The notes below the pieces were generated by a model. That model saw nothing but the letters and a program-made list of their open reading frames with translations. It searched no databases and was not told where the DNA came from. This document shows positions 1,987 through 63,841 of a stretch of DNA of 64,000 bases, in pieces. Positions within the stretch are counted from its first letter, which is position 1; every line of letters begins with the position of its first letter. A program made the translations under genes and the position numbers. This DNA comes from Catellatospora sp. IY07-71 (GTDB lineage: Bacteria; Actinomycetota; Actinomycetes; Mycobacteriales; Micromonosporaceae), in assembly GCF_018326265.1 (NCBI RefSeq), contig NZ_AP023360.1, positions 8,181,001 through 8,245,000 on the forward strand. Reading direction: 5' to 3'.

Positions 1987-4442
1987 ACGCACGACGCCAT
2001 CTGGGCCTGGTCGCGGCCGGGGCCACGCTGCTGGCCTCCGCGCCGATCTCGGCGATCTTCTCCGGCTGGACCTGGCTGTTCGAGGGCGGGCTGATGATCG
2101 CCCTGGTGTGCGGGGCGGCGCTGGGCGCCCGCTCGCTGCGCGGGCGGCTGTGGGCGCAGCTGCTGGCCATGCTCGCCGCCCTGCTCGTCGGCCTGACCTG
2201 GCTCTACGGCGAGGGGACCGGCATCATCGGGCTGATCCCGACCCCGGACACGTTCGCCCACTTCGGACAGCTGTTCGCGCAGGCCGGGGAGGAGGTGCAG
2301 AAGAGCTTCGTGCCGGTGCCCGACCTGGAGGGCCTGCTGTTCATCAGCGCGCTGGGCATGGGCTCGGTGGCGATCCTGGTCGACTTCTGCGCGGTCGGCC
2401 TGCGCCGGCCGGCCCTGGCCGGGCTGCCCATGCTCGCCATCTACTCGGTGCCGGTGGCGGTCTACCTCGACTCGATCTCGCCGATCCCGTTCGTGATCGG
2501 CGCGGTCGGCTTCCTGTGGCTGCTGGTCAGCGACAACGTCGACCGGGTGCGCCGCTTTGGCCGCCGGTTCACCGGGGAGGGCCGCGGCGTCGACGTCTGG
2601 GAGCCGTCGCCGCTGGCGGCGGCCGGGCGGCGGCTGTCGGTGATCGGCGTGCTGATCGCGGTGGCGCTGCCGCTGGCGGTGCCCGCCATGAGCGCCGGCT
2701 TCCTGGGCGAGCTCGGCACCGGCCAGGGCCTCGGCCAGGCCGGCAAGGGCACCCGCGGCAGCGGCCAGGTGGACCTGTTCGCCGAGCTGAGCGGCAAGCT
2801 CAAGCAGGCCGACACGCAGGACATGGTGAAGGTCACCACCAACGACCCGAACCCGTTCTACATGCGCTTCGGCGTGGCCGACCTGGCCGGCGGCAACGGC
2901 TTCACCGCCGGGCACCCGGCGGGCCAGCCGGTCGGCGACCAGCTGCCCGGCCCCTCCGGGCTCAACCTCGGCGCGGTGAAGAACGTCCGGGCCACGGCGG
3001 CGGTGGAGATCACCGATGCGTACAACATGCCGCTGCTGCCGGTGTACGCCGCGCCGGTGTCGATGCGCGGCCTCGACGCGGCCTGGAGTTACGACCCGGA
3101 CCGGCAGGTCGTCTTCTCGCAGAAGGCCAACTCGGCCGGGCGCGCCTACGAGTTCGACTACGTCCGGGCCGAGTTCACCCCGGACCAGCTGCGCGCGGCC
3201 ACCACGCTGACCGACGCGGACCCCACGCACCGCATCTACAGCGAGGTCCCCGCGGTGTCGCAGGTCAAGACGCTGGTGGACCGGCTGATCGCGGGCAAGG
3301 ACAACGACTACGACCGGGTCCGGGCGCTCTACGACTACTTCTCCGTCAAGAACGACTTCGCCTACGACGTCAGCGCCCCGGCCGGCACCAGCGGCCAGGC
3401 CATCGTCGACTTCCTGGAGGGCAAGCGCGGCTTCTGCGAGCAGTACGCGGCGGCGCTGGCCTGGATGGTGCGCACGGCGGACATCCCGGCCCGGGTGGCG
3501 TTCGGTTTCACGCTGGGCGGCGCCCCGGTCGACGGCCGGCGGGTGCTGACCAACCGCAACCTGCACGCCTGGACCGAGGTGTACTTCGCCGGCTTCGGCT
3601 GGGTGCCGTTCGACGCCACCCCGTCGACGTACGTGCTCGGCTCGGTGCCCACCGCGTGGGCGCCGAACGTGGACGCCCCGGAGGAGACCCCGGGCGGCCC
3701 GCAGCCGTCGCTGAGCCCCGGCGCCACCACCGGCCCGAACGGTGAGGGCGGCCCGACTCGCGATCCGATCGACCCGGACGGCGGCGCGGCCGGCCTGCCG
3801 GCCATCACCGAGCAGCTGCCGGTCTGGGTCTGGTGGGCGCTGGGCGGCGGGCTGGTGCTGGTGGTGCTGCTGGTGGCACCGGCGTTGCGGCGGATCTCGT
3901 TGCGCCGCCGCCGTGGGGCCCGCGCCGCGCAGGCCCACGCTGACGGCGACCTCGCCCAGGTGCGCCCGGCCGCGCCCGGCCCGGTCATGACCGTCACCGG
4001 CGACGCCGTCGGCGCCCGGGAGCAGGCCCACGCCGCGTGGGACGAGCTCATCGACACGATGATCGACTACCGGCTGGCGGTGGACCCGGCGGAGACGCCG
4101 CGGGCCACCGTGGAGCGGCTGGTCAGCACCACGCTGCCCGGCTCGGCCGCCGCCGAGCAGGCACGGCTGCTCGGCACGGCCGAGGAGCGCGCCCGCTACG
4201 CGCCGGTGCCGCTGGCCGGGGACCGGCTGACCGCCGCGGTCCGCGAGGTGCGCCGGGCGATCGCCGGCCAGGCGGGACGGCGTGCCCGGCTCAGCGCCGT
4301 GCTGATGCCGGCGTCGGTGCTGCTGCGCTGGCGCAACGCCGGATACACCGCGCTCACCACGCTGTCGGCCTGGACGGCGGCGGCCAGCGGCACGGCCAAG
4401 CGGGTGCTGCGGCCGCTGCGGCCCCGGCGGCTGCTGCGCTGA
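1983..4442 (+). CDS. Transglutaminase-like TgpA family membrane protein with DUF4129 tail
   Basis: The ATG at 1983 overlaps the preceding TGA, giving 819 residues. The first 220 or so residues form several membrane helices. A periplasm-side transglutaminase core follows with a complete triad: Cys485 in GKRGFCEQYA, His528 in LHAWTEVYF and Asp544 in VPFDATP. A Gly/Pro linker, one more helix near 612-635 and a DUF4129-type C-terminal segment (AWDELIDTMIDYRLA) follow. The family is TgpA-like, of unknown substrate, and usually sits with MoxR and DUF58 as here. An upstream in-frame extension exists but would run through the DUF58 gene, so the ATGA start is preferred. A hairpin terminator lies 22 bases after the stop. 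Confidence 0.9.
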   Translation: MNARRHLGLVAAGATLLASAPISAIFSGWTWLFEGGLMIALVCGAALGARSLRGRLWAQLLAMLAALLVGLTWLYGEGTGIIGLIPTPDTFAHFGQLFAQAGEEVQKSFVPVPDLEGLLFISALGMGSVAILVDFCAVGLRRPALAGLPMLAIYSVPVAVYLDSISPIPFVIGAVGFLWLLVSDNVDRVRRFGRRFTGEGRGVDVWEPSPLAAAGRRLSVIGVLIAVALPLAVPAMSAGFLGELGTGQGLGQAGKGTRGSGQVDLFAELSGKLKQADTQDMVKVTTNDPNPFYMRFGVADLAGGNGFTAGHPAGQPVGDQLPGPSGLNLGAVKNVRATAAVEITDAYNMPLLPVYAAPVSMRGLDAAWSYDPDRQVVFSQKANSAGRAYEFDYVRAEFTPDQLRAATTLTDADPTHRIYSEVPAVSQVKTLVDRLIAGKDNDYDRVRALYDYFSVKNDFAYDVSAPAGTSGQAIVDFLEGKRGFCEQYAAALAWMVRTADIPARVAFGFTLGGAPVDGRRVLTNRNLHAWTEVYFAGFGWVPFDATPSTYVLGSVPTAWAPNVDAPEETPGGPQPSLSPGATTGPNGEGGPTRDPIDPDGGAAGLPAITEQLPVWVWWALGGGLVLVVLLVAPALRRISLRRRRGARAAQAHADGDLAQVRPAAPGPVMTVTGDAVGAREQAHAAWDELIDTMIDYRLAVDPAETPRATVERLVSTTLPGSAAAEQARLLGTAEERARYAPVPLAGDRLTAAVREVRRAIAGQAGRRARLSAVLMPASVLLRWRNAGYTALTTLSAWTAAASGTAKRVLRPLRPRRLLR

Positions 4443-13500: not shown

Positions 13501-13963
13501 CCAGCAGGTGGGTGCCCGCGGGATCGGGCGCGCCCCCGCCCCGCGGCACCCCCGCCAGGTTCAGCTCCGCCCCGAACACGGTGGGCAGCCCGTGCTCCCG
13601 CGCCGCCTCCGCGAACCGCACCACCCCGTAGAGCCCGTCGTGATCGGTGACCGCCAGCGCCTCCAGCCCCAGCCGCACCGCCTCCGCGACCAGCTCCTCC
13701 GGATCACTCGCCCCGTCCAGAAAGCTGAAGTTGGTATGGCAGTGCAGCTCCGCATACGGCACCACGTCCCGCGGCCGCTCGACCCGCTCCGCCCGATAAG
13801 GCTCCCGCTTCCGCGAGAACCCCGGCCCGTCACCCCCGTCAGCCACCGCCAGCGGATCGACCACCAGGCCGCCCCGCATCCGCCGCTCCAGCTCCCCCCA
13901 CGGCAGCTGCCCCTGACCGTCAAACCCCACTCGAACAACTGTACTAACCCCACCCCACCCCAC
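10577..13963 (-). CDS. dnaE2: Error-prone DNA polymerase III alpha subunit DnaE2
   Basis: A protein of 1128 residues. The GTG at 13963 has AGGAGG seven bases upstream. A PHP domain opens near residue 72 (AELHCHTNFSFLDGAS); the polymerase palm carries PPDIDVDIESDRR near residue 470; the tail has an OB-fold (VLVGGLVTHRQRPATAGG). This is DnaE2, the catalytic subunit of the actinobacterial mutasome, which works with ImuA' and ImuB on damaged templates. It is the last gene of the HEPN-imuA-imuB-dnaE2 unit, separated from imuB by a 162-bp palindromic element. Codons in the first 150 bases are unusually G-rich compared with the rest of the gene, an effect seen next to other palindromes in the window. 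Confidence 0.95.
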   Translation of the reverse strand: MGWGGVSTVVRVGFDGQGQLPWGELERRMRGGLVVDPLAVADGGDGPGFSRKREPYRAERVERPRDVVPYAELHCHTNFSFLDGASDPEELVAEAVRLGLEALAVTDHDGLYGVVRFAEAAREHGLPTVFGAELNLAGVPRGGGAPDPAGTHLLVLARGPQGYANLARALSEAHLEGGEKGRPKYELEKIAETLQQSAVILTGCRKGAVPRALLTDGVDAAARELDRLAALFGAENVVVELIDHADPYDGDRNDALCGLAARAGLRVAASNNVHYHHPARRRLATVTAAVRARTSLDQIDGHLPAAATAHLRSGAEMAARFAAMPHPLARGAVAYAAELGRELAFDLRLVAPKLPPFTDPPGDRVDEVAFLRARTLEGAAERYGPREAYPEAYERIEHELRMIEQLEFPGYFLVVWDIVRFCREADIYCQGRGSAANSAVCYALRITNVDPVGGEGGLLFERFLAPERDGPPDIDVDIESDRREEVIQYVYRRYDRRHTAQVANVISYRPRSAVRDVARAFGFSAGQQDAWSKQIDRWSAVSAGDVDGIPPHVLEYANELLAAPRHLGIHSGGMVICDRPIIEVCPVEWARMPGRTVLQWDKDDCAAVDLVKFDLLGLGMLSALHYAFDFLGQELDLGDLKPDDPEVYAMLCRADTVGVFQVESRAQMSTLPRLRPERFYDLVVEVALIRPGPIQGGSVHPFIRRKNGQEPVDIPHPRMHNSLARTLGVPLFQEQMMQLAIDVADFTPVEADQLRRAMGSKRSMDRMERLRGRLFEGMARNGIEGALAEDIFAKLAAFANYGFPESHAMSFAYLVYASAWLKRYHPAAFCAALLGAQPMGFYSPQSLVDDARRHGVRVRRPDVNASPVKAGLEWAPGDRSGSLPGEQPSQWGLGGPAVRLGLDSVRTLGEDVAKRIVEERARGGAYADMTDLARRTGLTAPQLEALATADAFACFGLDRRAALWAAGAAATDTPDRLPGTVVGVHAPVLPGMEDVDRLVADVWATGLSPDDHPIRLVRERLTVRGALPISRLTGVEHGSRVLVGGLVTHRQRPATAGGVTFLNLEDETGMLNVVCSPGLWQRHRTVARSSAALLVRGRLESASGVRNLVADQLAPLPVATPAASRDFR

Positions 13964-13983
13964 CTCCCACCCTCCTCTACCGC

Positions 13984-14145
13984 GTTGATCATGAACTTAA
14001 GTGCGTGTTCGACGGCGTGTCGCACCCCCGATACCGTGATCAACACCGCCGACAGAGCGCCCAGCACCGGCCGAGGGAGCCCGAAACGATCACGGGCGCA
14101 GGGTTGCGACACACCGCCGAACACGTCTCCAAGTTCATGATCAAC
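13984..14145. repeat. Palindromic element, family 1, copy A (long form)
   Basis: The outer 15 bases are perfect inverted repeats (GTTGATCATGAACTT at 13984-13998, complement at 14131-14145). The similarity continues imperfectly for about 60 bases on each side (shared GTGTTCG, GTGTCGCA and GTGATC blocks), so the whole 162 bp can fold as one long hairpin. It fills the gap between imuB and dnaE2. Related copies lie at 39466-39521 and 55100-55218. Confidence 0.85.
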
Positions 14146-14173
14146 CCACAGGAAGAGGGGCCGCGGGGTGCGG

Positions 14174-15703
14174 TCAGTCGAAGTGGAGGGTGATGGTCCA
14201 GTGGCCGGCGGTGAGGGTGAGGAGGATGGCGCGGCCGGTGGACAGGAGGACCTGGAGGCGGGCGGCGCGGTGGGCGCGGCGGGAGTCCCACCACTGCTCG
14301 TCCACGGGCCAGGGACCGGCCCAGCCGGTGACCTCGGCCGTTCTGCCGTCGAGCACCAGGAATGCCGGGTCGGCGCTGAGCTCCAGGCGGGCGGTGATGC
14401 GCACCTCCTCGCCGCCGGCGGCGAGCAGCCGGGCGGGCTGCGGCTCGACCAGGACCACGGCGGGCGCGGGCGGGGGCAGCCGGCCGGGCCACGGGCCGTC
14501 GGGGCGCACCGGCACCCGCTCGTCCCCCCACGGCACCAGGGTGGCCTGTTCACCGGGGTCGCGCCCGCCGCCGAGCACCGCGGTCAGCACCGCTTCGGGG
14601 CCGAGGATGCCCTGCACCCGGTGCAGCGCGCGGTGCGCGCGGTCCCGCTCGGCGCCGACGTCGCCCCACAGCCCGGCCTGCAGGCCCGCCTGGCGCACCA
14701 GCCCGTCGGGGACCAGCCGCAGCGCGGCGATCCCGGCGGTCATCCGGCGCTGGGTGATCCAGCCCTCCAGCTGCCAGCGGGTGCGGTCGGCGATGGCGTG
14801 GGCGGTGAGTACGCCGTCGTGGCGCCATACCCGGTGCAGCTCGCGGCCGTCGGCGGTGACCGCGCCGATCTCCAGCCGGGTGGCCGCCAGGCCGTGCGCG
14901 GCGAGCCGTTCGTGCAGCTGCTCGGCCAGCGCGCGGGCGGCGAACGCGGCGGTGTCGACCCGGTCGACCGGTTCGTCGTAGCGCTCCTCGACCTCCAGCT
15001 CGGGCGGGGCCTGGCGGACCGCGAGCGGCCGGTCGTCGCGGCCCGCGGCCAGCCGCTGGGCCAGCGCCGCGTCGAGCCCGAACCGCGCCAGCACGTCACT
15101 GGGCGGCAGGGCCGCGAAATCACCCAGCGTGTGTACGCCGAGCCGGCGCAGCAGGCTGGTCAGCTGCGGCCGGTCCAGGGTGCTGACCGGCATCGCGGCC
15201 AGGAAGGAGGCGGTCTGCCCCGGGGCGACGATCCGGCCGGCCCGGGCGGCCAGCAGCGCGGCGAAGGCGCCGTCGGCGACGCCGAGCTGCGCCTCGACCC
15301 CGCACTCCTGCGCGACCTGCTCGACGATGCGCTCGGCGGCGGCCTCCTCGCCGCCGAAGTAGCGGGCCGGGCCGCGCGCCGCGAACGCGCAGACGCCCGC
15401 GCGCACCACCGCCACCGAGGCGGCGATCTCCTCGACGGCGGCGAGCACGGGCTCGAAGGCGCGTATGTCGCGCACCGGGTCGTAGTCCACCACGATCACC
15501 TGCGGGCACCGGCTCTGCGCCTCACGTTTGCGCAGACCGCGGCGTACACCCTCGGCACGCGCGGCGGCGGAGGAGGCGATCACCCGGTTGGCGTGCAGCA
15601 CCGCGACGGGCCGGTGTGCGGGCACCCCGTCCATCAGGTCGGCGGCGATGACCGGCCAGTCCGGACACCAGACGAGCATGGTCCGCTGGGCGGCGTCGCC
15701 CAT
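14174..15703 (-). CDS. imuB: ImuB: Y-family polymerase homologue lacking catalytic carboxylates
   Basis: A protein of 509 residues, overlapping the previous gene by ATGA. The fold is Y-family (LVWCPDWPVIAADL, VIASSAAARAEGVRRGLRK, a thumb with LRRLGVHTLGDFA), but the positions of the DinB acidic residues are altered: MDMD is replaced by CPDW and the SVDEAF equivalent by an Ala/Arg-rich stretch. In mycobacteria ImuB is catalytically inactive and bridges DnaE2, ImuA' and the sliding clamp; the same adaptor role is inferred here. The last 100 bases use nearly only C-ending codons, next to the palindrome at 13984. Confidence 0.88.
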   Translation of the reverse strand: MGDAAQRTMLVWCPDWPVIAADLMDGVPAHRPVAVLHANRVIASSAAARAEGVRRGLRKREAQSRCPQVIVVDYDPVRDIRAFEPVLAAVEEIAASVAVVRAGVCAFAARGPARYFGGEEAAAERIVEQVAQECGVEAQLGVADGAFAALLAARAGRIVAPGQTASFLAAMPVSTLDRPQLTSLLRRLGVHTLGDFAALPPSDVLARFGLDAALAQRLAAGRDDRPLAVRQAPPELEVEERYDEPVDRVDTAAFAARALAEQLHERLAAHGLAATRLEIGAVTADGRELHRVWRHDGVLTAHAIADRTRWQLEGWITQRRMTAGIAALRLVPDGLVRQAGLQAGLWGDVGAERDRAHRALHRVQGILGPEAVLTAVLGGGRDPGEQATLVPWGDERVPVRPDGPWPGRLPPPAPAVVLVEPQPARLLAAGGEEVRITARLELSADPAFLVLDGRTAEVTGWAGPWPVDEQWWDSRRAHRAARLQVLLSTGRAILLTLTAGHWTITLHFD

Positions 15704-16623: not shown

Positions 16624-16663
16624 CCCCCCGTGTCGTACGTGGATACGGTCGTGCGCTGCCGGC

Positions 16664-16730
16664 GATGATCGGTGTCTCGTGTCAGAACCTGCGGCCAGGC
16701 CCCACGTTCTGACACGAACCAGCGATCTTC
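16664..16730. repeat. Palindromic element, family 2, copy 1
   Basis: Arms 16664-16688 and 16706-16730 match at 21 of 25 positions, with the core TCGTGTCAGAAC perfectly paired. It occupies the gap between the HEPN gene and imuA. Other copies: 23141-23206, 23252-23324 and 42301-42371. Confidence 0.82.
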
Positions 16731-16734
16731 ACCG

Positions 16735-19650: not shown

Positions 19651-19725
19651 GATCGTCCGACTTGCCAGGCAGGTGGGCGTATCTTGGCCGCTCATTCGCC
19701 CGTCTGCCAGGCAAGTCGAGTGATC
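19651..19725. repeat. Palindromic element, family 5
   Basis: 29-base arms (19651-19679 and 19697-19725) begin with GATC and share CGACTTGCC, GGCAG and GGGCG; about 24 of 29 positions pair. It lies between convergent genes and may terminate both. Three imperfect direct repeats of the form CTTGAYCGTCCG precede it (19608-19660). Confidence 0.75.
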
Positions 19726-23206: not shown

Positions 23207-23251
23207 GACCGGCTCCACCGCCGACTCGGCCCCGCCGTCGGCGAGTACGCC

Positions 23252-23324
23252 CGCGAAGATCGCTGTCTCGTGTCGGGAAGTGGGCTCTGAGCTCACCTTT
23301 GGACACGAGACAGCGATCTTCGCG
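23252..23324. repeat. Palindromic element, family 2, copy 3 (perfect arms)
   Basis: Perfect 23-bp arms at 23252-23274 and 23302-23324, with core GATCGCTGTCTCGTGTC and a 27-base spacer. The best conserved copy of the family, and 45 bases from copy 2. Confidence 0.85.
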
Positions 23325-26355: not shown

Positions 26356-28086
26356 GTGCTCCCCCGCCACGCCACGACCCGGGCCGCCGTCGCCCTCGGC
26401 TGCGTCTCCGGCGTGCTGCTGGCCGGGTCGGCGTTCCTGGCGGGCGCGCTGCCGGGCGGCGACCCGGGCCCCGGCCTGCGGCTGGGCGGGTTCGGCGCGG
26501 TCCCGGCGGGTTTTCTCGCGGGCCTGCTCTGCTGGCTGCTCGGCCTGTCCGGCTGGACGGCCGCCTGGTGGCAGCTCGGCCGCCTCCTTCCCCAGGTCCA
26601 AGCTCCCGTCATGCCGCTGGAGCAGCATCGCCGGAGCCTGGAGCACAGCCGGGCACAGCCGGGCGGGGATGCCGGGGTCGGCGTGTCGGCCGGGCGGGTC
26701 CTGCTGATCGGGGCGGCGTGGGCGGCGCCGCTGCTGGTCGCGCCGCCGCTGGGCAGCCGGGATGTGTATGCGTACGCCTGCCAGGGCTGGCTGTGGCGCG
26801 CGGGGGTGGACCCCTACGCGCTGGGCGTCGCCGACGGCGGCTGCCCCTGGAGCGCGGCCGTCCCCGAACTGTGGTGGCACACCCCCACCCCCTACGGCCC
26901 CGCGGCCGTCGTCCTGTCCGGCGCGGTGACCTGGCTCGGCGGCCTGCTCGGCGCGCTCGGCGGCCTCCGCCTGCTCGCCGTCGCCGCCCTCGCCCTGCTC
27001 GCCGCCACCCTGCCCACCGTGGCCCGCGCCTGCGGCGTCCCCGTCCCCGCCGCCTACTGGCTCGCCCTGCTCACCCCCCTCACCGCCGTCCACGCCCTCT
27101 CCGCCGCCCACAACGACGTCATCGTCGCCGCCCTCACCCTCACCGCCCTGGCGCTGTCCCTCACCGGACCCCGCCAAGATCGTGTCGATCTTGCACGAAG
27201 TGTTGCCCATTCGCCCGTTTCACCCGTGTCGTCCCCACATCCCGCGCAAGATCAACGCACCGTGCCCGCCGCCGCCGACTCGGCCCGGCCCGAGACCCGC
27301 GAGCGCCGTGAGGGCGGCGGCAGTTTCGGGGAAACTGCAGCCGACGACGTCTCGATGAGTGCAGTTTCCCCGAAACTGCACCCCGGCCTCGGGCTCCGGG
27401 GCGGGGCGGGGGTGGGGGTGGGGGCGGCGCTGGCGGGGTTGGCCGTCGCGGGGGCGGTGGGGGTGAAGGTGACGGCGGTGGTGGTGGTGCCGTTCGTGTT
27501 GGTGCTGCTGGGGCGGCGATGGTGGGTCGGGGCGGTGGCCGGGGTCGGCGGGTTTGCGCTGTTCAGCGTGGTGAGCGGGTTGGGGCTGGGGTGGGTCGGA
27601 GCGCTCAGGGGCACGGGGGAGCTGGCGCAGTGGAGTTCGCCGCCGACGGCGGTGGGGATGACCGTGGGGTATCTGCTGCGGGGTGTGGGGCTGGGCGAGT
27701 GGTCGGGCGCGGCGGTGACCGTGGCTCGGGTGCTGGGGGTGCTGGTGTTGGCCGGGATCGGGCTGGTCGCACTGCGGCACGCGTGGCGGCATCGGGGGCA
27801 GGCGCGGGTGGTGGTGCTCGCCTGCGGGTGGGTGATGGCGGCGACGGCGCTGCTCGGGCCGGTGTTCTATCCGTGGTACGCGGTGGCGCCGCTGGCGGTG
27901 CTGGCGGCGGCCGAGACCGACGCGCGGCGGCGGCGGTGGCTGGCCCTGGCGGCGGCCGGGTGCGCGTTCCTGACGCTGCCCAACGGGCTCGGGGTGCCGG
28001 TGCTGACCAAGGCGGTGGGCGCGGTCGCGGTCACGGCCGCGCTGATCGCCGCCGCCGTCCGGTCCAGACCCAGAGCGAGAGCGTGA
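26356..28086 (+). CDS. mptA: Polyprenol-phosphomannose-dependent alpha-1,6-mannosyltransferase, MptA/MptB family
   Basis: A GT-C membrane enzyme of 576 residues from GTG 26356. Signatures: LGSRDVYAYACQGWLWRAG in the first loop (catalytic Asp region), WHTPTPYGP, and SAAHNDVIVAAL near 250. It extends mannan cores of lipoglycans from C35/C50-P-mannose. Position between idsA2- and Rv2175c-like genes favours MptA. Between the helix ending near residue 272 and the next helix near 357 lies an odd hydrophilic segment of about 85 residues carrying two palindromic DNA elements; relatives normally have a short loop here. Base use flips from C-rich to G-rich across that segment. The 3' end overlaps the lycopene cyclase gene by 56 bases. 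Confidence 0.85.
   Translation: MLPRHATTRAAVALGCVSGVLLAGSAFLAGALPGGDPGPGLRLGGFGAVPAGFLAGLLCWLLGLSGWTAAWWQLGRLLPQVQAPVMPLEQHRRSLEHSRAQPGGDAGVGVSAGRVLLIGAAWAAPLLVAPPLGSRDVYAYACQGWLWRAGVDPYALGVADGGCPWSAAVPELWWHTPTPYGPAAVVLSGAVTWLGGLLGALGGLRLLAVAALALLAATLPTVARACGVPVPAAYWLALLTPLTAVHALSAAHNDVIVAALTLTALALSLTGPRQDRVDLARSVAHSPVSPVSSPHPAQDQRTVPAAADSARPETRERREGGGSFGETAADDVSMSAVSPKLHPGLGLRGGAGVGVGAALAGLAVAGAVGVKVTAVVVVPFVLVLLGRRWWVGAVAGVGGFALFSVVSGLGLGWVGALRGTGELAQWSSPPTAVGMTVGYLLRGVGLGEWSGAAVTVARVLGVLVLAGIGLVALRHAWRHRGQARVVVLACGWVMAATALLGPVFYPWYAVAPLAVLAAAETDARRRRWLALAAAGCAFLTLPNGLGVPVLTKAVGAVAVTAALIAAAVRSRPRARA
27187..27253. repeat. Palindromic element, family 3, inside mptA
   Basis: 67 bp, GATCTTGCACGAAGTGTTGC to the matching GCGCAAGATC end. 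It has the same length as the intergenic copy at 33519-33585 and shares its central GTGTCGTCCCCACA. It is translated within MptA (about residues 278-300). Confidence 0.8.
27320..27379. repeat. Palindromic element, family 4, inside mptA
   Basis: 60 bp with perfect 20-base arms (GCAGTTTCGGGGAAACTGCA at 27320-27339 and its complement at 27360-27379) and a 20-base spacer. The sister copy is at 63782-63841. Translated in frame as about residues 322-342 of MptA. Confidence 0.85.
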
Positions 28087-33483: not shown

Positions 33484-33518
33484 CCGCTCCGCCGCTCCGC
33501 CGCTCCGCCGCTTGCGTC

Positions 33519-33585
33519 GATCTTGCGCGAACTGTTGCCTATCTGCCCGATTCAGGCGTGTCGTCCCCACAGTTCGCGCAAGATC
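33519..33585. repeat. Palindromic element, family 3, intergenic copy
   Basis: 67 bp with perfect 17-base arms (GATCTTGCGCGAACTGT at 33519-33535, complement at 33569-33585). It lies between the convergent bfr and threonine aldolase genes, four bases from the latter's stop, and may terminate both. A CCGCTCCG tandem repeat precedes it at 33484-33512. Confidence 0.85.
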
Positions 33586-33588
33586 GGC

Positions 33589-38632: not shown

Positions 38633-39439
38633 TCAGGAGGCCTGGTCGGCGATCTCCCTGGCCCGGTCCCGGGCCGCTTCGAGGGCCGCCAGCAGCGCCG
38701 CGCGTACGCCGTGGTTCTCCAGCTCGCGGATGGCGGAGATGGTGGTGCCGGCGGGCGAGGTGACCGCCTCGCGCAGCTTCACCGGGTGCTCCCCCGAGTC
38801 GCGCAGCATGATGGCCGAGCCGATCGCGGTCTGCACGATGAGGTCGTGCGCCACCTGGCGCGGCAGCCCCAGCAGGATGCCCGCGTCGGTCATCGCCTCG
38901 ACCAGGAAGTAGAAGTACGCCGGGCCGGAGCCGGACAGCGCGGTGACCGCGTCCTGCTGGCTCTCCGGCACCCGGATGGTGCGGCCCAGCGGCGAGAACA
39001 GCTCCTCGGCCACGGCCAGGTGCTCGGCCGTGGCGTGCGGCCCGGCCGAGATCGCGGTCATCGCCTCGTCGACCAGCGCCGGCGTGTTCGTCATGACCCG
39101 GACCACGGGCGTGCCCTCGGCCAGCCACTTGGTGAAGAACGAGGTGGGCAGGCCGGCACACAGCGAGATCACCAGCTTGCCCGCCGGGATCTGCGGCCCC
39201 AGCTCGGCCAGCAGCACACCCGCGTCCTGCGGCTTCACCGCGATGGCGACCACGTCGGCGGCCTCGACCGCCTCGGCGTTGGCCAGCACCCGGATGCCGT
39301 ACCGGTTGCGCAGCTGCTCCGCCCGCTCCTCCCGCCGCGCCGTCGCCACGATCTGATCCACCGGCCACCCGGCCTTGACCAGACCCGACAGCAGCACCTC
39401 ACCGATCTTTCCCGCCCCGATGACAGCAACGGTGTACAC
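38633..39439 (-). CDS. proC: Pyrroline-5-carboxylate reductase
   Basis: A protein of 268 residues from GTG 39439 (GGGGAGA upstream). N-terminal NAD(P) motif VAVIGAGKIGEVLLSG, VVRVMTNTPALVDEAMTAIS, and the C-terminal dimer signature VTALSGSGPAYFYFLVEA with TSPAGTTISAI. It carries out the last step of proline synthesis. The first 100 bases use mainly G-ending codons, next to the palindrome at 39466. Confidence 0.94.
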   Translation of the reverse strand: MYTVAVIGAGKIGEVLLSGLVKAGWPVDQIVATARREERAEQLRNRYGIRVLANAEAVEAADVVAIAVKPQDAGVLLAELGPQIPAGKLVISLCAGLPTSFFTKWLAEGTPVVRVMTNTPALVDEAMTAISAGPHATAEHLAVAEELFSPLGRTIRVPESQQDAVTALSGSGPAYFYFLVEAMTDAGILLGLPRQVAHDLIVQTAIGSAIMLRDSGEHPVKLREAVTSPAGTTISAIRELENHGVRAALLAALEAARDRAREIADQAS

Positions 39440-39465
39440 GTCTCCCCTAACCCTCCGAAGGGGTC

Positions 39466-39521
39466 GATCATGAACTTAAGGGTGCCGACACACCGTCGAA
39501 CACGCACTTAAGTTCATGATC
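39466..39521. repeat. Palindromic element, family 1, copy B (short form)
   Basis: Perfect 15-base arms: GATCATGAACTTAAG (39466-39480) and its complement (39507-39521). The interior matches the right arm of copy A (GACACACCG, CGAACACG), so it looks like an internal deletion product. Lies between pfkA and proC. Confidence 0.85.
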
Positions 39522-39536
39522 AACCAAGGAGAGGAC

Positions 39537-40562
39537 TCAGCCGAAGAAGGCCTCGGCCTCGGTGTAGCGGTGCGGGGGGACGACCTTGAGTTCGCGGGTC
39601 GCCTCGATGAGGGGGACTCGGACGATTTCGGTGCCGCGGAGGGCGACCATCTTGCCGAAGTCGCCCTCGTGGACGGCGTCGATGGCGTGCAGGCCGAAGC
39701 GGGTGGCCAGGACGCGGTCGAAGGCGGTGGGGGTGCCGCCGCGCTGGGTGTGGCCCAGGACGACCGCGCGGGCCTCCTTGCCGGTGCGCTTCTCGAGCTG
39801 GTCGGCGAGCCAGTTGCCGATGCCGCCCAGGCGGACGTGGCCGAAGGCGTCCAGCTCGCCGTTCAGGGTGATCATGTCGCCGTCGGTGGGCATGGCGCCC
39901 TCGGAGATCACGATGATCGGCGAGTAGTTCGTCTTGAACCGGGTCTCCACGTGCTCGACGACCTTGTCCAGGTCGAACTTCTGCTCGGGGAGCAGGATCA
40001 CGTTGGCGCCGCCGGCCAGGCCCGCGTGCAGCGCGATCCAGCCCGCGTGGCGGCCCATGACCTCGACGACCACGGTGCGGTGGTGCGACTCGGCGGTGGT
40101 GTGCAGCCGGTCGATCGCCTCCATGGCGATGTTGACCGCGGTGTCGAAGCCGAACGTGAAGTCGGTCGCGCCGAGGTCGTTGTCGATGGTCTTCGGCACG
40201 CCGACGACGTTGACGCCGAGATCCGTCAGCTTGGTCGCGACGCCGAGGGTGTCCTCGCCGCCGATCGCGACCAGCGCGTCGATCCCCATGCTCGCCAGGT
40301 TGTCCTTGATCCGCTCCACACCGTTCTCGATCTTGAACGGGTTGGTGCGGGAGGAACCCAGGATGGTGCCGCCGCGCGGCAGGATGCCACGGACCTCCGG
40401 AATGCCCAGCGGGCGGGTGATGCCCTCCAGCGGGCCCTTCCAGCCGTCGCGGAACCCGACGAACTCGTGCCCGTAGGTGCCCACGCCCTTGCGGACCACG
40501 GCGCGGATGACCGCGTTGAGACCGGGGCAGTCGCCGCCGCCGGTGAGTACGCCGATACGCAT
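39537..40562 (-). CDS. pfkA: Phosphofructokinase with pyrophosphate-type active-site residues
   Basis: A protein of 341 residues; ATG 40562 with GGGAGG eight bases upstream. The family is clear (GGGDCPGLNAVIR, TIDNDLGATDFTFGFDTA, MGRHAGWIALHAGLA). Residues at the donor site read GGEDT (Asp104) and PKTIDND (Lys124), in E. coli numbering. ATP-dependent enzymes have Gly at both positions; Asp104 plus Lys124 is the pattern of pyrophosphate-dependent enzymes. It should therefore make fructose 1,6-bisphosphate reversibly with PPi, although databases often label such proteins ATP-PFK. Confidence 0.9.
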   Translation of the reverse strand: MRIGVLTGGGDCPGLNAVIRAVVRKGVGTYGHEFVGFRDGWKGPLEGITRPLGIPEVRGILPRGGTILGSSRTNPFKIENGVERIKDNLASMGIDALVAIGGEDTLGVATKLTDLGVNVVGVPKTIDNDLGATDFTFGFDTAVNIAMEAIDRLHTTAESHHRTVVVEVMGRHAGWIALHAGLAGGANVILLPEQKFDLDKVVEHVETRFKTNYSPIIVISEGAMPTDGDMITLNGELDAFGHVRLGGIGNWLADQLEKRTGKEARAVVLGHTQRGGTPTAFDRVLATRFGLHAIDAVHEGDFGKMVALRGTEIVRVPLIEATRELKVVPPHRYTEAEAFFG

Positions 40563-42236: not shown

Positions 42237-42300
42237 CCACCAGCCGCCCGCCACTGGCCCGGTCCGGTCCGAGGCCAGCCGGCCAGCCGACCGCCAGCCG

Positions 42301-42371
42301 GTGATGATCGCGGTTTCGTGTCCAAACGCGTGGCCAGGACCCAGGTTCTGACACGAGATCGCGATCATCAC
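42301..42371. repeat. Palindromic element, family 2, copy 4
   Basis: Arms 42301-42322 and 42350-42371 pair at 20 of 22 positions (outer GTGATGATCGCG perfect). Lies between convergent genes. Confidence 0.82.
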
Positions 42372-42435
42372 GAGCGGCGCACGGCCCGCTTAGCTCGGCC
42401 AGCCCGGCTCGGCGCGTAGCCGAGGCCGGTGGGCC

Positions 42436-54393: not shown

Positions 54394-55068
54394 CTATGCG
54401 AGGTCCACGAGGATCGGGTAGTGGTCGCTGGCCCGGTCCGCGTCCGGGGTGTCGACCACCCGGTACTCCCGCACCTCCAGGCGCGGGTCGACGAGCAGCG
54501 CGTCGATGCGGCGGGTCGGGTTCGGCACGGGGAACGTGGCCCGGTCCGCCAGCCCGGCGACCGCCGCGGCGTCGGCCAGCCGATCGGTGAGCAGCGGCCA
54601 GCAGCCGCCGTCCGGGCACTCGTTGAGGTCCAGCCCCACGATCACGGGGTCGGCCAGCGCGTCGATCGCGGGCTTGAGCAGCGCGGCCTGCCCGGGGCGC
54701 TCCTCGTCGTCGGTGGACAGGTGCGTGCCGACCACGGCGAAGGGGACGCGCCCCGGCACCTCCAACCGCGTGAACACCGCGCCCCGCATGTGCCGTCCGG
54801 GGGTCAGCGGGTAGCGCATGCACCACTGGTCGAGCACGCGTACCCGCAGATTTGTCATGATCACGTTACCGAGGCTGGGCATCCCACCCGCGGCCATGTA
54901 CATCCCGAACGAGTGCGCCAGGTCCGCGCACTTCGTGCGCCACCGCCACCGCCGCGGCGCCTCCTGCACGATCAGCACGTCCGGCGCCAGCCCCCGCACC
55001 ACCCGCGCCAAGGCCCCGAGATCATCCCGCAGCGAATGCACGTTGTACGAAACCACCCGCACCGACAT
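54394..55068 (-). CDS. Endonuclease/exonuclease/phosphatase-family protein
   Basis: 224 residues from ATG 55068 (MSVRVVSYNVHSL; an upstream ATG adds four). Metal and catalytic sites: SYNVHSL (Asn), IVQEAP (Glu), VGTHLS (His), VIVGLDLNECPD (Asp, Asn) and ASDHYPI (Asp-His). Could cleave nucleic acid, phosphoinositide or other phosphoesters; no export signal. The 5' codons are G-rich next to the palindrome at 55100. Confidence 0.85.
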   Translation of the reverse strand: MSVRVVSYNVHSLRDDLGALARVVRGLAPDVLIVQEAPRRWRWRTKCADLAHSFGMYMAAGGMPSLGNVIMTNLRVRVLDQWCMRYPLTPGRHMRGAVFTRLEVPGRVPFAVVGTHLSTDDEERPGQAALLKPAIDALADPVIVGLDLNECPDGGCWPLLTDRLADAAAVAGLADRATFPVPNPTRRIDALLVDPRLEVREYRVVDTPDADRASDHYPILVDLA

Positions 55069-55099
55069 GCCGCCCAGCATGCCCCACCCGCCACACGGC

Positions 55100-55218
55100 G
55101 ATCATGAACTTATGTCAGCGACACGCCGTCGAGCCGTTCGGAACATGGTTCGTCCCGGCGCGCCGCCGCTCTCGCGACGCGCCAAGGGACTCACCACGTT
55201 CCGCATAAGTTCATGATC
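55100..55218. repeat. Palindromic element, family 1, copy C
   Basis: Perfect 15-base arms GATCATGAACTTATG (55100-55114) and its complement (55204-55218) with an 89-base interior; the left part of the interior shares GCGACACGCCGTCGA with the other copies. Lies between glucokinase and the endonuclease-family gene. Confidence 0.82.
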
Positions 55219-55233
55219 AACACATGTCTGCTG

Positions 55234-56178
55234 CTACTGGCGGGCCAGGTCGGCGGCGCCGATGAGGCCTGCGGTGTTGCCCATCTTGGCGGCGCGGAGC
55301 TCGGCCACCGGGAGGCGGCCGCGCTGGGCGAGGCTGTCCAGGTAGGACTGGCGGGCGGGGGTCATCAGGAGGTCGCCGGCGTCGATGACGCCGCCGCCCA
55401 CCACGAGGACCTGGGGGTCGAGGATCTGGACCAGGTCGGCCAGGCCCTGGCCGAGCCAGTAGCCGATCTGGCCGAACGCGTCGATCGCGATCTCGTCGCC
55501 GGCCTGCGCCGCCGAGGTCACGATCGGGCCGGTGATGTTCTCGACCTTGCCTTCGGCCTTGTCGAGCAGCAGCTTGGCGCGCTCGGGCTCGGCCTGGGCA
55601 CCCGCCCGCGCGAAGCGGACCAGGGCGTTGCCGCTGGCGTACTGCTCGATGCAGCCGTGCCGGCCGCAGCCGCACACGTGCCCGTCGGGCACCGCCAGCA
55701 TGTGACCGATCTCCGCCGCGATGCCGTGCGCGCCGCGGACCAGGCCGCCGCCGAGCACGATGCCGCCGCCGATGCCGGTGCCGACGGTGAACATCACCAT
55801 CGAGTCCTCGGCGTCGGCCGCCGCGCCGTAGCGGAACTCCGCCCACGCCGCCACGTTCGCGTCGTTCTCCACCACCACGGGGAGGTTCACCGCCTTGGCG
55901 ACGTAGTCCCGCAGCGGCTCGTCACGCCAGGCCAGGTTCGGTGCGAACAGCACCGTCGACCGGGTCGCGTCAATCCATCCGGCGGCGCCGATGCCGACCG
56001 CGTCCACCCTGTGCTCGGTGGACAGATCCTTCACCACATCGATGATCACGTCCCGGGTCGCGGCGACGTCGCCGGCCGGGGTGTCGCGACGGCTCGTCGC
56101 GATCACGGTGCCGTCAGGATCGACCACACCGCCGAGCACCTTGGTGCCACCGATGTCCACGCCGATGGTGAGTGCCAC
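55234..56178 (-). CDS. glkA: ROK-family glucokinase
   Basis: A protein of 314 residues from GTG 56178 (AAGGAAGG eight bases upstream). ATP loop GVDIGGTKVLGGVV, catalytic Asp in VVENDANVAAWAE, EIGHM and the zinc motif CGCGRHGCIEQYASG identify a ROK glucokinase. In Streptomyces the homologue also mediates carbon catabolite repression. Confidence 0.94.
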   Translation of the reverse strand: MALTIGVDIGGTKVLGGVVDPDGTVIATSRRDTPAGDVAATRDVIIDVVKDLSTEHRVDAVGIGAAGWIDATRSTVLFAPNLAWRDEPLRDYVAKAVNLPVVVENDANVAAWAEFRYGAAADAEDSMVMFTVGTGIGGGIVLGGGLVRGAHGIAAEIGHMLAVPDGHVCGCGRHGCIEQYASGNALVRFARAGAQAEPERAKLLLDKAEGKVENITGPIVTSAAQAGDEIAIDAFGQIGYWLGQGLADLVQILDPQVLVVGGGVIDAGDLLMTPARQSYLDSLAQRGRLPVAELRAAKMGNTAGLIGAADLARQ

Positions 56179-63781: not shown

Positions 63782-63841
63782 GCAGTTTCGGGGAAAGTGC
63801 AGGTAAGACGGCGCTCTCTCGTGCACTTTCCCCGAAACTGC
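63782..63841. repeat. Palindromic element, family 4, intergenic copy
   Basis: 60 bp with perfect 20-base arms (GCAGTTTCGGGGAAAGTGCA at 63782-63801, complement at 63822-63841) and a 20-base spacer; same design as the copy inside mptA. Between convergent genes. Confidence 0.85.

What the first reader, a model, noticed from the sequence alone, without database searches (positions are those of the whole stretch)
27001..27600. Palindromic elements sit at local switches of strand composition
For each element whose flanks I counted by hand, the plus strand is C-rich on the left and G-rich on the right, whatever the direction of the flanking genes. C:G counts are 100:38 (27001-27180) against 31:105 (27421-27600), both inside one gene; 64:28 against 25:66 around copy A at 13984 (13801-13920, 14161-14280); 59:27 against 32:50 around 39466 (39301-39420, 39541-39660); 59:33 against 34:56 around 55100 (54901-55020, 55261-55380). 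Codons entering the palindrome end in C and those leaving it end in G. Gene ends without an element are balanced (about 24:26 at 4381-4440). Diverging G-rich strands resemble a miniature replication-origin skew. This suggests recurrent repair synthesis, recombination or strand exposure starting from the hairpins.
Basis: partly seen in the sequence, partly recalled or inferred. Interest (0 to 1): 0.85.

Follow-up and report, generated by a model that had tools for sequence, protein, structure and literature searches.

The report
Repeats that reshape neighbouring DNA composition
In this bacterium (genus Catellatospora), DNA beside several unrelated families of short palindromic repeats becomes C-rich on the strand that runs toward the repeat, and comparison with two sister species indicates that carrying the repeat drives this, which points to a local, strand-biased evolutionary process whose mechanism is not yet known.

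Summary
All nine hand counts are exact. In 2 Mb of the 8.6 Mb Catellatospora chromosome, 207 sites with five unrelated palindromic repeat families show a C-rich to G-rich switch, positive at 194 of 207. Gene junctions without repeats average -0.03 to +0.03, and 18 strong non-family hairpins +0.025. Of 37 switches of 0.7 or more, 35 carry such a repeat. Aligned with two sister species, the skew follows the repeat: in carrier lineages G>C on the strand running toward it is 1.85x and C>G 0.52x the far rate at 4-fold sites; repeat-free lineages lack this. A fixation bias (S about 1.2) fits far better than extra mutation alone. Insertion preference, hairpins as such and a miniature origin are disfavoured. 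My preferred mechanism is inferred: breaks at repeats start strand invasion, and the mismatch nuclease NucS (present; MutS not found) tolerates C-C but not G-G, so C spreads. The stronger effect in genes transcribed into a repeat is not explained by this and favours an RNA-level rival.

The parts
13982..14046 (+). family V element (core CATGAACTTA); skew L -0.40, R +0.29; flanking genes --
   Evidence: nhmmer E 4e-16
16659..16734 (+). family I element (core GTCTCGTGTC); no switch (L -0.01, R -0.01)
   Evidence: nhmmer E 5e-20; a counter-example
19651..19725 (-). family II element (core CTTGCCTGGCA); L -0.36, R +0.26; flanking genes +-
   Evidence: nhmmer E 7e-21
23251..23324 (+). family I element between divergent genes; weak switch (L -0.11, R +0.08)
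   Evidence: nhmmer E 6e-18
26356..28086 (+). open reading frame (576 aa and stop; weak, sub-threshold Pfam match to glycosyltransferase family 87) that contains elements III and IV in frame; third-position G:C 5:39 before (aa 226-269) and 40:6 after (aa 349-395)
   Evidence: aligned with orthologs from 10 relatives, one of them misframed and not used; E 0.0059, 16.8 bits, cut-off 25
27183..27257 (+). family III element (core CTTGCGCGAACTGT) inside the reading frame
   Evidence: nhmmer E 8e-15; the encoded peptide is present in orthologs from G002, G003, G004, G006 and G010 and absent in G001, G005, G008 and G009; a family III match also lies within the G007 ortholog
27320..27379 (-). family IV element (core CAGTTTCGGGG) inside the same frame; L -0.37, R +0.55
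   Evidence: nhmmer E 1e-16; its peptide is seen in G000 and G002 and not in the other orthologs aligned
33514..33587 (+). family III element; almost no switch (L -0.03, R +0.07)
   Evidence: nhmmer E 1e-20
39462..39525 (-). family V element; L -0.26, R +0.26; flanking genes --
   Evidence: nhmmer E 2e-16
42299..42374 (-). family I element; weak (L -0.18, R -0.04)
   Evidence: nhmmer E 6e-18
55097..55222 (-). family V element; L -0.27, R +0.15; flanking genes --
   Evidence: nhmmer E 7e-14
63782..63841 (-). family IV element; L -0.18, R +0.13; flanking genes +-
   Evidence: nhmmer E 2e-15
27001..27180 (.). left flank: plus strand C-rich (100 C : 38 G)
27421..27600 (.). right flank: plus strand G-rich (31 C : 105 G)

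Best explanation
Supported by comparison: the bias is active in lineages that carry the repeat and absent in lineages that lack it, so it follows the repeat and is not a pre-existing target. Inferred mechanism: recurrent breaks or gaps at the repeats are resected, leaving 3'-ended strands that run toward the repeat; these invade a homologous chromosome copy, and the heteroduplex is screened by NucS, the mismatch nuclease of Actinobacteria. An invading G opposite G, or G or T opposite T or G, is rejected, while C opposite C and A opposite C are tolerated. The inward strand is therefore converted from keto (G, T) to amino (C, A) bases: biased gene conversion without a need for higher mutation. 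The confidence given is for this whole chain; for the first part alone (the element causes an ongoing strand-polar substitution bias) I would give 0.85.
For: Causation: orthologous columns with element versus empty site, F/G008: skew 0.203 vs 0.086 (0-120 bp), 0.092 vs -0.009 (120-250); variable columns G>C 176: C>G 62, but 768: 742 at 700-1200 bp. Polarised 4-fold changes at 36 loci, carrier lineages: G>C 125/480 within 200 bp vs 511/3621 far (x1.85), C>G 92/1352 vs 515/3926 (x0.52); repeat-free lineages 32/177 and 71/376, about equal rates, with C>G above its far rate (x1.36, p 0.02). Locus bootstrap 95% for the carrier ratios: 1.33-2.27 and 0.39-0.65. lnL (0-180 bp): null -549.5, G>C raised only -534.0, one-parameter fixation bias S=1.24 -508.5, free -508.5. 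Reciprocal test: at 12 repeats present in G003 and absent in F, the G003 lineage has G>C x1.90 and F x0.91. Other pairs: G>A x2.56, C>T x0.57 at third and noncoding sites. NucS is found in this genome, MutS is not. Of seven mismatches tested in M. smegmatis in vivo, NucS acted on G-T, G-G and T-T only; C-C, A-C and A-A were not cut by the archaeal enzyme in vitro (PMC11551767, passages read). NucS limits homeologous recombination (PMC8228993, passages read).
Against: No break, recombination or conversion was observed; every mechanistic step is inferred. From the rates I compute S of about 1.4 where the gene runs into the repeat and about 0.55 where it runs away, and coding sequence of divergent pairs shows little; symmetric conversion does not predict that. 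Noncoding flanks shift less (ln C/G 0.40-0.50 at 30-90 bp; 0.15 at 0-80 bp where the gene ends 80-160 bp away); slower noncoding turnover may explain it, untested. T>C (8/247 vs 29/559) does not rise as the NucS rule would have it; outbound R codons in + genes show A 0.14 (n=112) against 0.05, also unpredicted. C>A and A>C both rise, 3.3- and 3.5-fold. In the small outbound set of repeat-free lineages C>G is low too (5/76 vs 75/545). At private loci, counting all columns, the fall in C>G is not significant (x0.78, x0.82), and the F excess of G>C is not either (x1.16, p 0.26). Far-region rates are unbalanced in two classes of loci (F: 0.165 vs 0.094 and 0.158 vs 0.093). Near the repeat the usual dependence on the next base is lost rather than added to. 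PMC11551767 also reports that NucS loss changes transversion mutation rates little (2.4- and 3.6-fold). Bias strength does not track how well a copy matches its family.
Confidence: 0.33

Rival explanations
1. RNA-level selection: transcripts that run into the repeat are selected to be C-rich and G-poor before the hairpin, for instance as a Rho loading region or to keep the hairpin free of mispairing.
For: Fixation bias is what selection would look like. The effect is strongest in genes transcribed into the repeat and weakest in divergent pairs. Gene ends without repeats are slightly C-rich too (ln C/G 0.17 at the last 40 codons vs 0.03 mid-gene).
Against: Non-family, terminator-like hairpins show no clear switch in any context. 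Tandem pairs show the switch on the side running away as well (outbound skew positive in 89 of 110). It is strong and symmetric inside a conserved reading frame. Untranslated flanks, where such selection would be freest, shift least. A rises relative to T, and the base before the site shows no preference for pyrimidine-C.
Confidence: 0.25
2. Strand-biased mutation: the strand running away from the repeat is single-stranded or resynthesised more often and loses C (to T by deamination, to G by misrepair).
For: Polarity equals that of a leading strand; within 150 bp, 2-fold codons show T 0.22 and 0.09 vs about 0.035 on the outward coding strand and A 0.22 and 0.19 vs 0.05 on the inward coding strand. 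C>A and A>C are both raised in carrier lineages. Divergence over all columns is slightly higher near elements (F/G003 shared 0.132 at 0-60 bp vs 0.109 far), and F/G008 4-fold divergence at shared loci is 0.364 at 180-300 bp vs 0.291 far.
Against: Extra mutation alone cannot halve the reverse change C>G (lnL -534.0 vs -508.5). Closest to shared elements (0-90 bp) 4-fold divergence is not raised (F/G003 0.218 vs 0.246; F/G008 0.254 vs 0.291).
Confidence: 0.2
3. Insertion preference or common cause: repeats insert where a C-to-G switch already exists.
For: Empty orthologous sites keep part of the skew (F/G008 4-fold C 0.63, G 0.31 vs 0.81, 0.15 at 0-90 bp; F/G003 empty sites 0.124 vs 0.176), close to what regression to the mean would give.
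Against: Switches of 0.7 or more hardly exist without a repeat (35 of 37 have one; of the other two, one is the edge of a masked rRNA stretch and one looks, by eye, like half of a family III repeat; only 2 switches of the opposite sign). Shared, hence older, repeats have larger, not smaller, mean switches in all three genomes (0.356 vs 0.232, 0.358 vs 0.322, 0.289 vs 0.147; p 0.05, 0.35, 0.09). The bias persists at loci shared by F and G003 in both lineages (G>C 0.25 and 0.18 vs C>G 0.05 and 0.05).
Confidence: 0.06
4. Ordinary effect of gene orientation or codon usage at convergent gene ends.
For: 61 of the 131 inverted repeats lie between convergent genes, and clean convergent junctions still have a small switch, +0.025.
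Against: Tandem pairs with family I-V repeats show +0.31 and +0.36 against about 0 in controls; the switch also appears inside genes and fades in about 250 bp.
Confidence: 0.01

Closest known systems
REP / BIME elements and REP-associated (RAYT) transposases
   Same: short palindromic units, many copies, mostly between genes and often at gene 3' ends, limited to a narrow taxonomic group
   Different: seven families here without blastn similarity to each other; one Y1 transposase hit in the genome, with none of the families within 5 kb. PMC3733652 has no occurrence of 'skew' in its main text; other REP papers were seen only as listings. 12 E. coli K-12 REP clusters show the opposite sign (1 of 12 positive), persisting to 800 bp, which I attribute to G-rich E. 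coli coding strands
Biased gene conversion at recombination hotspots (gBGC, PRDM9-type; recalled, listings)
   Same: local, distance-limited fixation bias around a break-prone sequence
   Different: here the bias is strand-polar (C over G on one strand), not GC over AT; bacterial; recombination itself was not measured
Replication-origin or terminus GC skew (recalled)
   Same: outward strand G-rich (slightly T-rich) on both sides, as for diverging leading strands
   Different: range about 250-500 bp, hundreds of sites; origin features were not searched
Rho-dependent terminators (C>G bubble, rut; recalled)
   Same: RNA entering the hairpin is C-rich and G-poor
   Different: also on the side running away and inside a reading frame; not seen at non-family hairpins

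Membership tests
REP element with RAYT | high-copy short palindrome between genes | tested here: met
   10 to 83 hits per family in 2 Mb; 2 of 207 I-V sites lie inside a gene
REP element with RAYT | RAYT (Y1 tyrosine transposase) in the genome, flanked by the element | tested here: not met
   one Y1_Tnp hit (5919117-5919482, 150 aa frame), no family hit within 5 kb
REP element with RAYT | GTAG or CGTC tag at one foot of the palindrome | not tested
   CGTC occurs in some II, III and V copies by eye; no formal test
MITE | terminal inverted repeats, target duplication, autonomous partner | not tested
   empty orthologous sites exist, but insertion junctions were not resolved
Rho-dependent terminator | C-rich, G-poor RNA before the end point | tested here: met
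   inbound genes
Rho-dependent terminator | restricted to transcripts that end there | tested here: not met
   skew also on outbound sides and inside a reading frame
Biased gene conversion hotspot | favoured change raised and reverse change lowered by matching factors | tested here: met
   x1.85 and x0.52 at 4-fold sites, S=1.24 fits as well as free rates; weaker at private loci
Biased gene conversion hotspot | locally raised recombination | not testable with these tools
   one genome per species; no population data
Biased gene conversion hotspot | effect independent of gene direction | tested here: not met
   inbound about twice outbound at 4-fold sites
Replication origin | skew extending far beyond the element | tested here: not met
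   skew ends by about 250-300 bp in composition
Replication origin | initiator boxes, unwinding element | not tested
   not searched

The most novel reading that the evidence does not exclude
Mobile palindromic repeats act as hotspots of strand-polar biased gene conversion in a bacterium: the mismatch nuclease NucS, by rejecting G-G, G-T and T-T but not C-C or A-C heteroduplexes, turns each repeat into a point from which C spreads outward along the inward-running strand, changing codons of neighbouring genes and perhaps some amino acids.
Probability: 0.3. Interest if true: 0.9.

Novelty: new variant of a known kind. Interest (0 to 1): 0.75.

Why it matters
It indicates that short repeats can set the direction of synonymous evolution of neighbouring genes in a bacterium, at hundreds of loci. 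That is a caution for reading codon usage, GC skew or C>G bubbles near gene ends as functional signals. If the conversion model holds, each repeat is a natural record of where bacterial chromosomes recombine and of what their mismatch repair rejects, which makes long-standing questions (how much gene conversion occurs in mycelial, multi-genome bacteria, and what NucS does in recombination) testable from sequence.

Tried and rejected
Gene orientation or codon usage alone: rejected by tandem pairs and controls. Hairpin as such: non-family inverted repeats show no clear switch (two -- cases of score 35+ average 0.206 because of one locus; only 2 of the 18 have loops over 16 bases, so long-loop hairpins are hardly tested). 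Flanks pairing with each other base by base: complementarity 0.3858 vs 0.3847 (SD 0.0018) in shuffled pairs. Dependence on element orientation: little in I-III, V, VI and VII; in IV 0.27 vs 0.56 for 11 and 9 copies. Known RNA family: none in the window at Rfam gathering scores. Replication direction: left and right amplitudes differ by about 0.04-0.06 in each block, partly the block's own skew; left open. Intactness of the copy: no significant correlation in six families. Insertion preference: kept at 0.06 because residual skew at empty sites fits it. Other families at orthologous sites: 2 of 23 (F/G003), 5 of 13 (F/G008), 4 of 12 (G003/G008) sites with an element in both; not interpreted. E. 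coli REPs as a generality test: 12 clusters in 400 kb with my pattern, opposite sign. Papers: the nine searches (two returned nothing) listed no paper that, by title and the start of its abstract, describes a skew switch at such repeats; passages of PMC3733652, PMC11551767 and PMC8228993 were read, no whole paper. Rows dropped: inverted repeats or hits near block ends (1.5 kb in most scripts); orthologous sites whose flanks did not align to within 600 bp of the element or were more than 2.5 kb apart; for polarised counts, sites not mapped in both relatives (36 of 51 F sites kept). Genes are my own calls from a codon score, not a published annotation.
Full report
SETTING. The window is G000:C1:8181001-8245000 of an 8,595,826-base single-contig genome. 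The nearest named relatives found are Catellatospora species (86% protein identity to C. bangladeshensis at the gene in question). I read 2 Mb of this genome as five 400-kb blocks and 400 kb each of two same-genus genomes, G003 and G008, around the orthologous gene. Both are collinear with block F, which holds the window, at 85% and 82.5% nucleotide identity of aligned parts. Genes are my own calls.

OBSERVATION. All nine counts are exact. An inverted-repeat finder gave 131 elements in 2 Mb and none in shuffled sequence. Averaged over them, GC skew is about -0.17 just left and +0.17 just right and returns to near zero by about 250 bp. By blastn the elements form seven families without similarity to each other, three pairs and 19 singletons. 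Profile searches of the 2 Mb gave these switches: I +0.186 (n=83, 69 positive), II +0.296 (43, 42 positive), III +0.412 (43 of 43), IV +0.397 (20, 19 positive), V +0.386 (34, 33 positive), VII +0.132 (82, 68 positive), VI +0.050 (10, 5 positive). Merging I-V gives 207 sites, 194 positive. Junctions free of all seven families and of inverted repeats average between -0.025 and +0.025. Scanning every position, 37 switches reach 0.7; 35 have a family I-V element within 150 bp. Of the other two, one is the edge of a masked rRNA stretch and one sits on what looks, by eye, like half of a family III element. Opposite switches reach 0.7 twice. At lower thresholds the excess is smaller: at 0.5-0.6, 29 of 41 positive switches have a family I-V element and there are 29 negative ones.

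NOT THE HAIRPIN ITSELF. Inverted repeats of score 35 or more outside the families average +0.025 (n=18, 13 positive, any loop) against +0.255 for 104 family ones (96 positive). Weaker non-family hairpins between genes also lie near zero in each context, the largest positive value with ten or more cases being +0.076 (-- at score 26-30, n=14). Ordinary terminator-like hairpins thus do not carry the signal. Family VI, near-perfect palindromes with loops of 0-4 bases in the copies found as inverted repeats, shows little, but VI has no hit in the 800 kb of relatives and may be young.

CODON LEVEL. At 4-fold sites the strand running toward the element has C 0.74-0.80 and G 0.16-0.19 within 60 bp in inbound genes, against 0.52 and 0.44 far away. 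At 2-fold sites within 150 bp, where C and G cannot replace each other, A rises from 0.05 to 0.22 and 0.19 on the inward coding strand, and T rises from about 0.035 to 0.22 and 0.09 on the outward coding strand. The process therefore favours C and A over G, and less clearly over T, on the inward strand. In the gene containing elements III and IV, the six genes carrying the element III peptide (G000 and five relatives) have third-position G:C of 4-8: 35-39 before and 38-41: 3-9 after. Three orthologs without it (G005, G008, G009) have 13-16: 28-31 and 26-31: 15-17, a weaker switch in the same sense, and G001, which lacks that stretch, is intermediate at 11:31 and 34:8 (the G007 row was misframed and is not used).

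EMPTY SITES. Of 51, 37 and 28 element sites in F, G003 and G008, those whose flanks could be mapped were compared column by column. Where the relative also has an element, skews at 0-120 bp are similar (F/G003 0.262 vs 0.250; F/G008 0.250 vs 0.181; G003/G008 0.241 vs 0.205). Where it is empty, the relative's skew is lower: F/G008 0.203 vs 0.086 (26 loci), G003/G008 0.261 vs 0.104 (19), G003/F 0.235 vs 0.111 (14), F/G003 0.176 vs 0.124 (25), G008/F 0.115 vs 0.010 (7), G008/G003 0.069 vs 0.016 (10). The residual at empty sites is about what regression to the mean would give under insertion preference, so this test alone is not decisive.

WHICH LINEAGE CHANGES. With three genomes, 4-fold changes can be assigned to the F or G003 lineage (36 loci). 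Where only F carries an element (13 loci, 0-180 bp), F shows G>C 0.233 and C>G 0.079 per site while G003 shows 0.171 and 0.176. Where F and G003 carry it (11 loci), both are biased: 0.250 and 0.052, and 0.176 and 0.052. Where all three carry it (8 loci): 0.222 and 0.052, and 0.211 and 0.094. Where F and G008 carry it and G003 does not (4 loci), F has 10/36 and 7/83 and G003 moves the other way, 2/27 and 24/99. Beyond 700 bp rates are 0.12-0.15 in the first two classes; in the last two they are uneven (F 0.165 vs 0.094 and 0.158 vs 0.093). At 12 loci where G003 has an element and F has none, over all columns, G003 is biased (G>C x1.90, C>G x0.82) and F is not (x0.91, x1.20); at 17 loci of the converse kind F is weakly so (x1.16, x0.78, neither significant; G>A x2.54, p 5e-5) and G003 shows a raised C>G (x1.52, p 0.0007). 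Insertion preference followed by relaxation predicts the opposite at shared loci. Shared elements have larger mean switches than private ones in all three genomes, though no single test passes 0.05.

FIXATION OR MUTATION. In carrier lineages G>C rises 1.85-fold and C>G falls to 0.52 at 4-fold sites. One parameter (scaled bias S=1.24) accounts for both; raising G>C alone is 25 log units worse. This is the signature of selection or biased conversion. Parsimony tends to inflate common-to-rare changes, which works against the result. Divergence gives no clear sign of hypermutation: at 0-90 bp of shared elements 4-fold divergence is below the far value (0.218 vs 0.246; 0.254 vs 0.291), but F/G008 rises to 0.364 at 180-300 bp and divergence over all columns is mostly slightly higher near elements.

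MECHANISM. I prefer biased conversion after breaks at the repeats, filtered by NucS. The genome has a NucS hit (2438515-2438877) and no MutS hit. NucS of M. smegmatis acted on G-T, G-G and T-T among seven mismatches tested in vivo; the same paper notes that transversion mutation rates depend little on NucS (PMC11551767, passages). If the invading strand is the 3'-ended one, which runs toward the break, the rule predicts C over G, A over G, C over T and A over T on the inward strand. The first two are seen clearly; C over T only as fewer C>T (x0.57), while T>C does not rise; the T/A pair is too sparse. Against it: at 4-fold sites the bias is stronger in genes that run into the element (S about 1.4, my arithmetic) than in those running away (about 0.55), and coding sequence of divergent pairs shows little beyond 90 bp. 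Outbound genes show strong skew mainly when the element lies within 20 bp of the start (8 sides). Transcription through the element may therefore matter, and RNA-level selection stays a serious rival. C>A and A>C are both raised about threefold in carrier lineages and not in repeat-free ones; I cannot explain this.

DISTRIBUTION. Families I and III matched 6 of 121 Micromonosporaceae genomes searched, all six in the window's genus (one query sequence per family at E 1e-6; the profile still finds family I copies in G008). Switches also occur around elements in G003 and G008. Twelve E. coli REP clusters do not show the switch. Other actinobacterial genera were not tested.

VERDICT. Observation confirmed; causal role of the repeats well supported; cause as hairpins or origins not supported; mechanism open, with strand-polar biased conversion the leading inference.

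Noticed in passing
window 27183-27379: Elements III and IV lie in frame inside a conserved gene (weak glycosyltransferase 87 match), so the frame reads through them, adding a stretch that several orthologs lack in whole or in part.
   Followed up: partly
flanks of elements, block F vs G003 and G008: C>A and A>C changes on the inward strand are both raised about threefold near elements in carrier lineages and not in repeat-free ones; G>T and T>G are not significantly raised in carriers. No explanation.
   Followed up: partly
inbound genes, 0-150 bp from elements: The usual dependence of C/G at 4-fold sites on the next base disappears near elements; C:G is about 3.3-4.6 in all four contexts.
   Followed up: no
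G000, family VII (82 hits in 2 Mb): A further repeat family, core GGGCACCTTC, with a weaker switch (+0.13 overall; +0.17 to +0.20 in ++, -- and +- contexts), also present in G003 (10 hits) and G008 (3 hits).
   Followed up: partly
G000:C1 family VI (10 hits in 2 Mb): Near-perfect palindromes with core CAACTTCTGGG, little switch, and no hit in 800 kb of two relatives; possibly a recent expansion or a regulatory site.
   Followed up: no
G000:C1:4380706: One of the 37 strongest switches without a detected element; the sequence holds what looks like half of a family III element between overlapping convergent gene calls.
   Followed up: no
G000:C1:5919117-5919482: The only Y1 (IS200-like) transposase hit in the genome, with none of the repeat families within 5 kb.
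   Followed up: partly
G000:C1:7290117-7290284: A second, weak NucS_C-domain match (27 bits) inside a 370-aa open frame.
   Followed up: no
genes without elements: Last 40 codons are slightly C-ending (ln C/G 0.17) compared with mid-gene (0.03).
   Followed up: no
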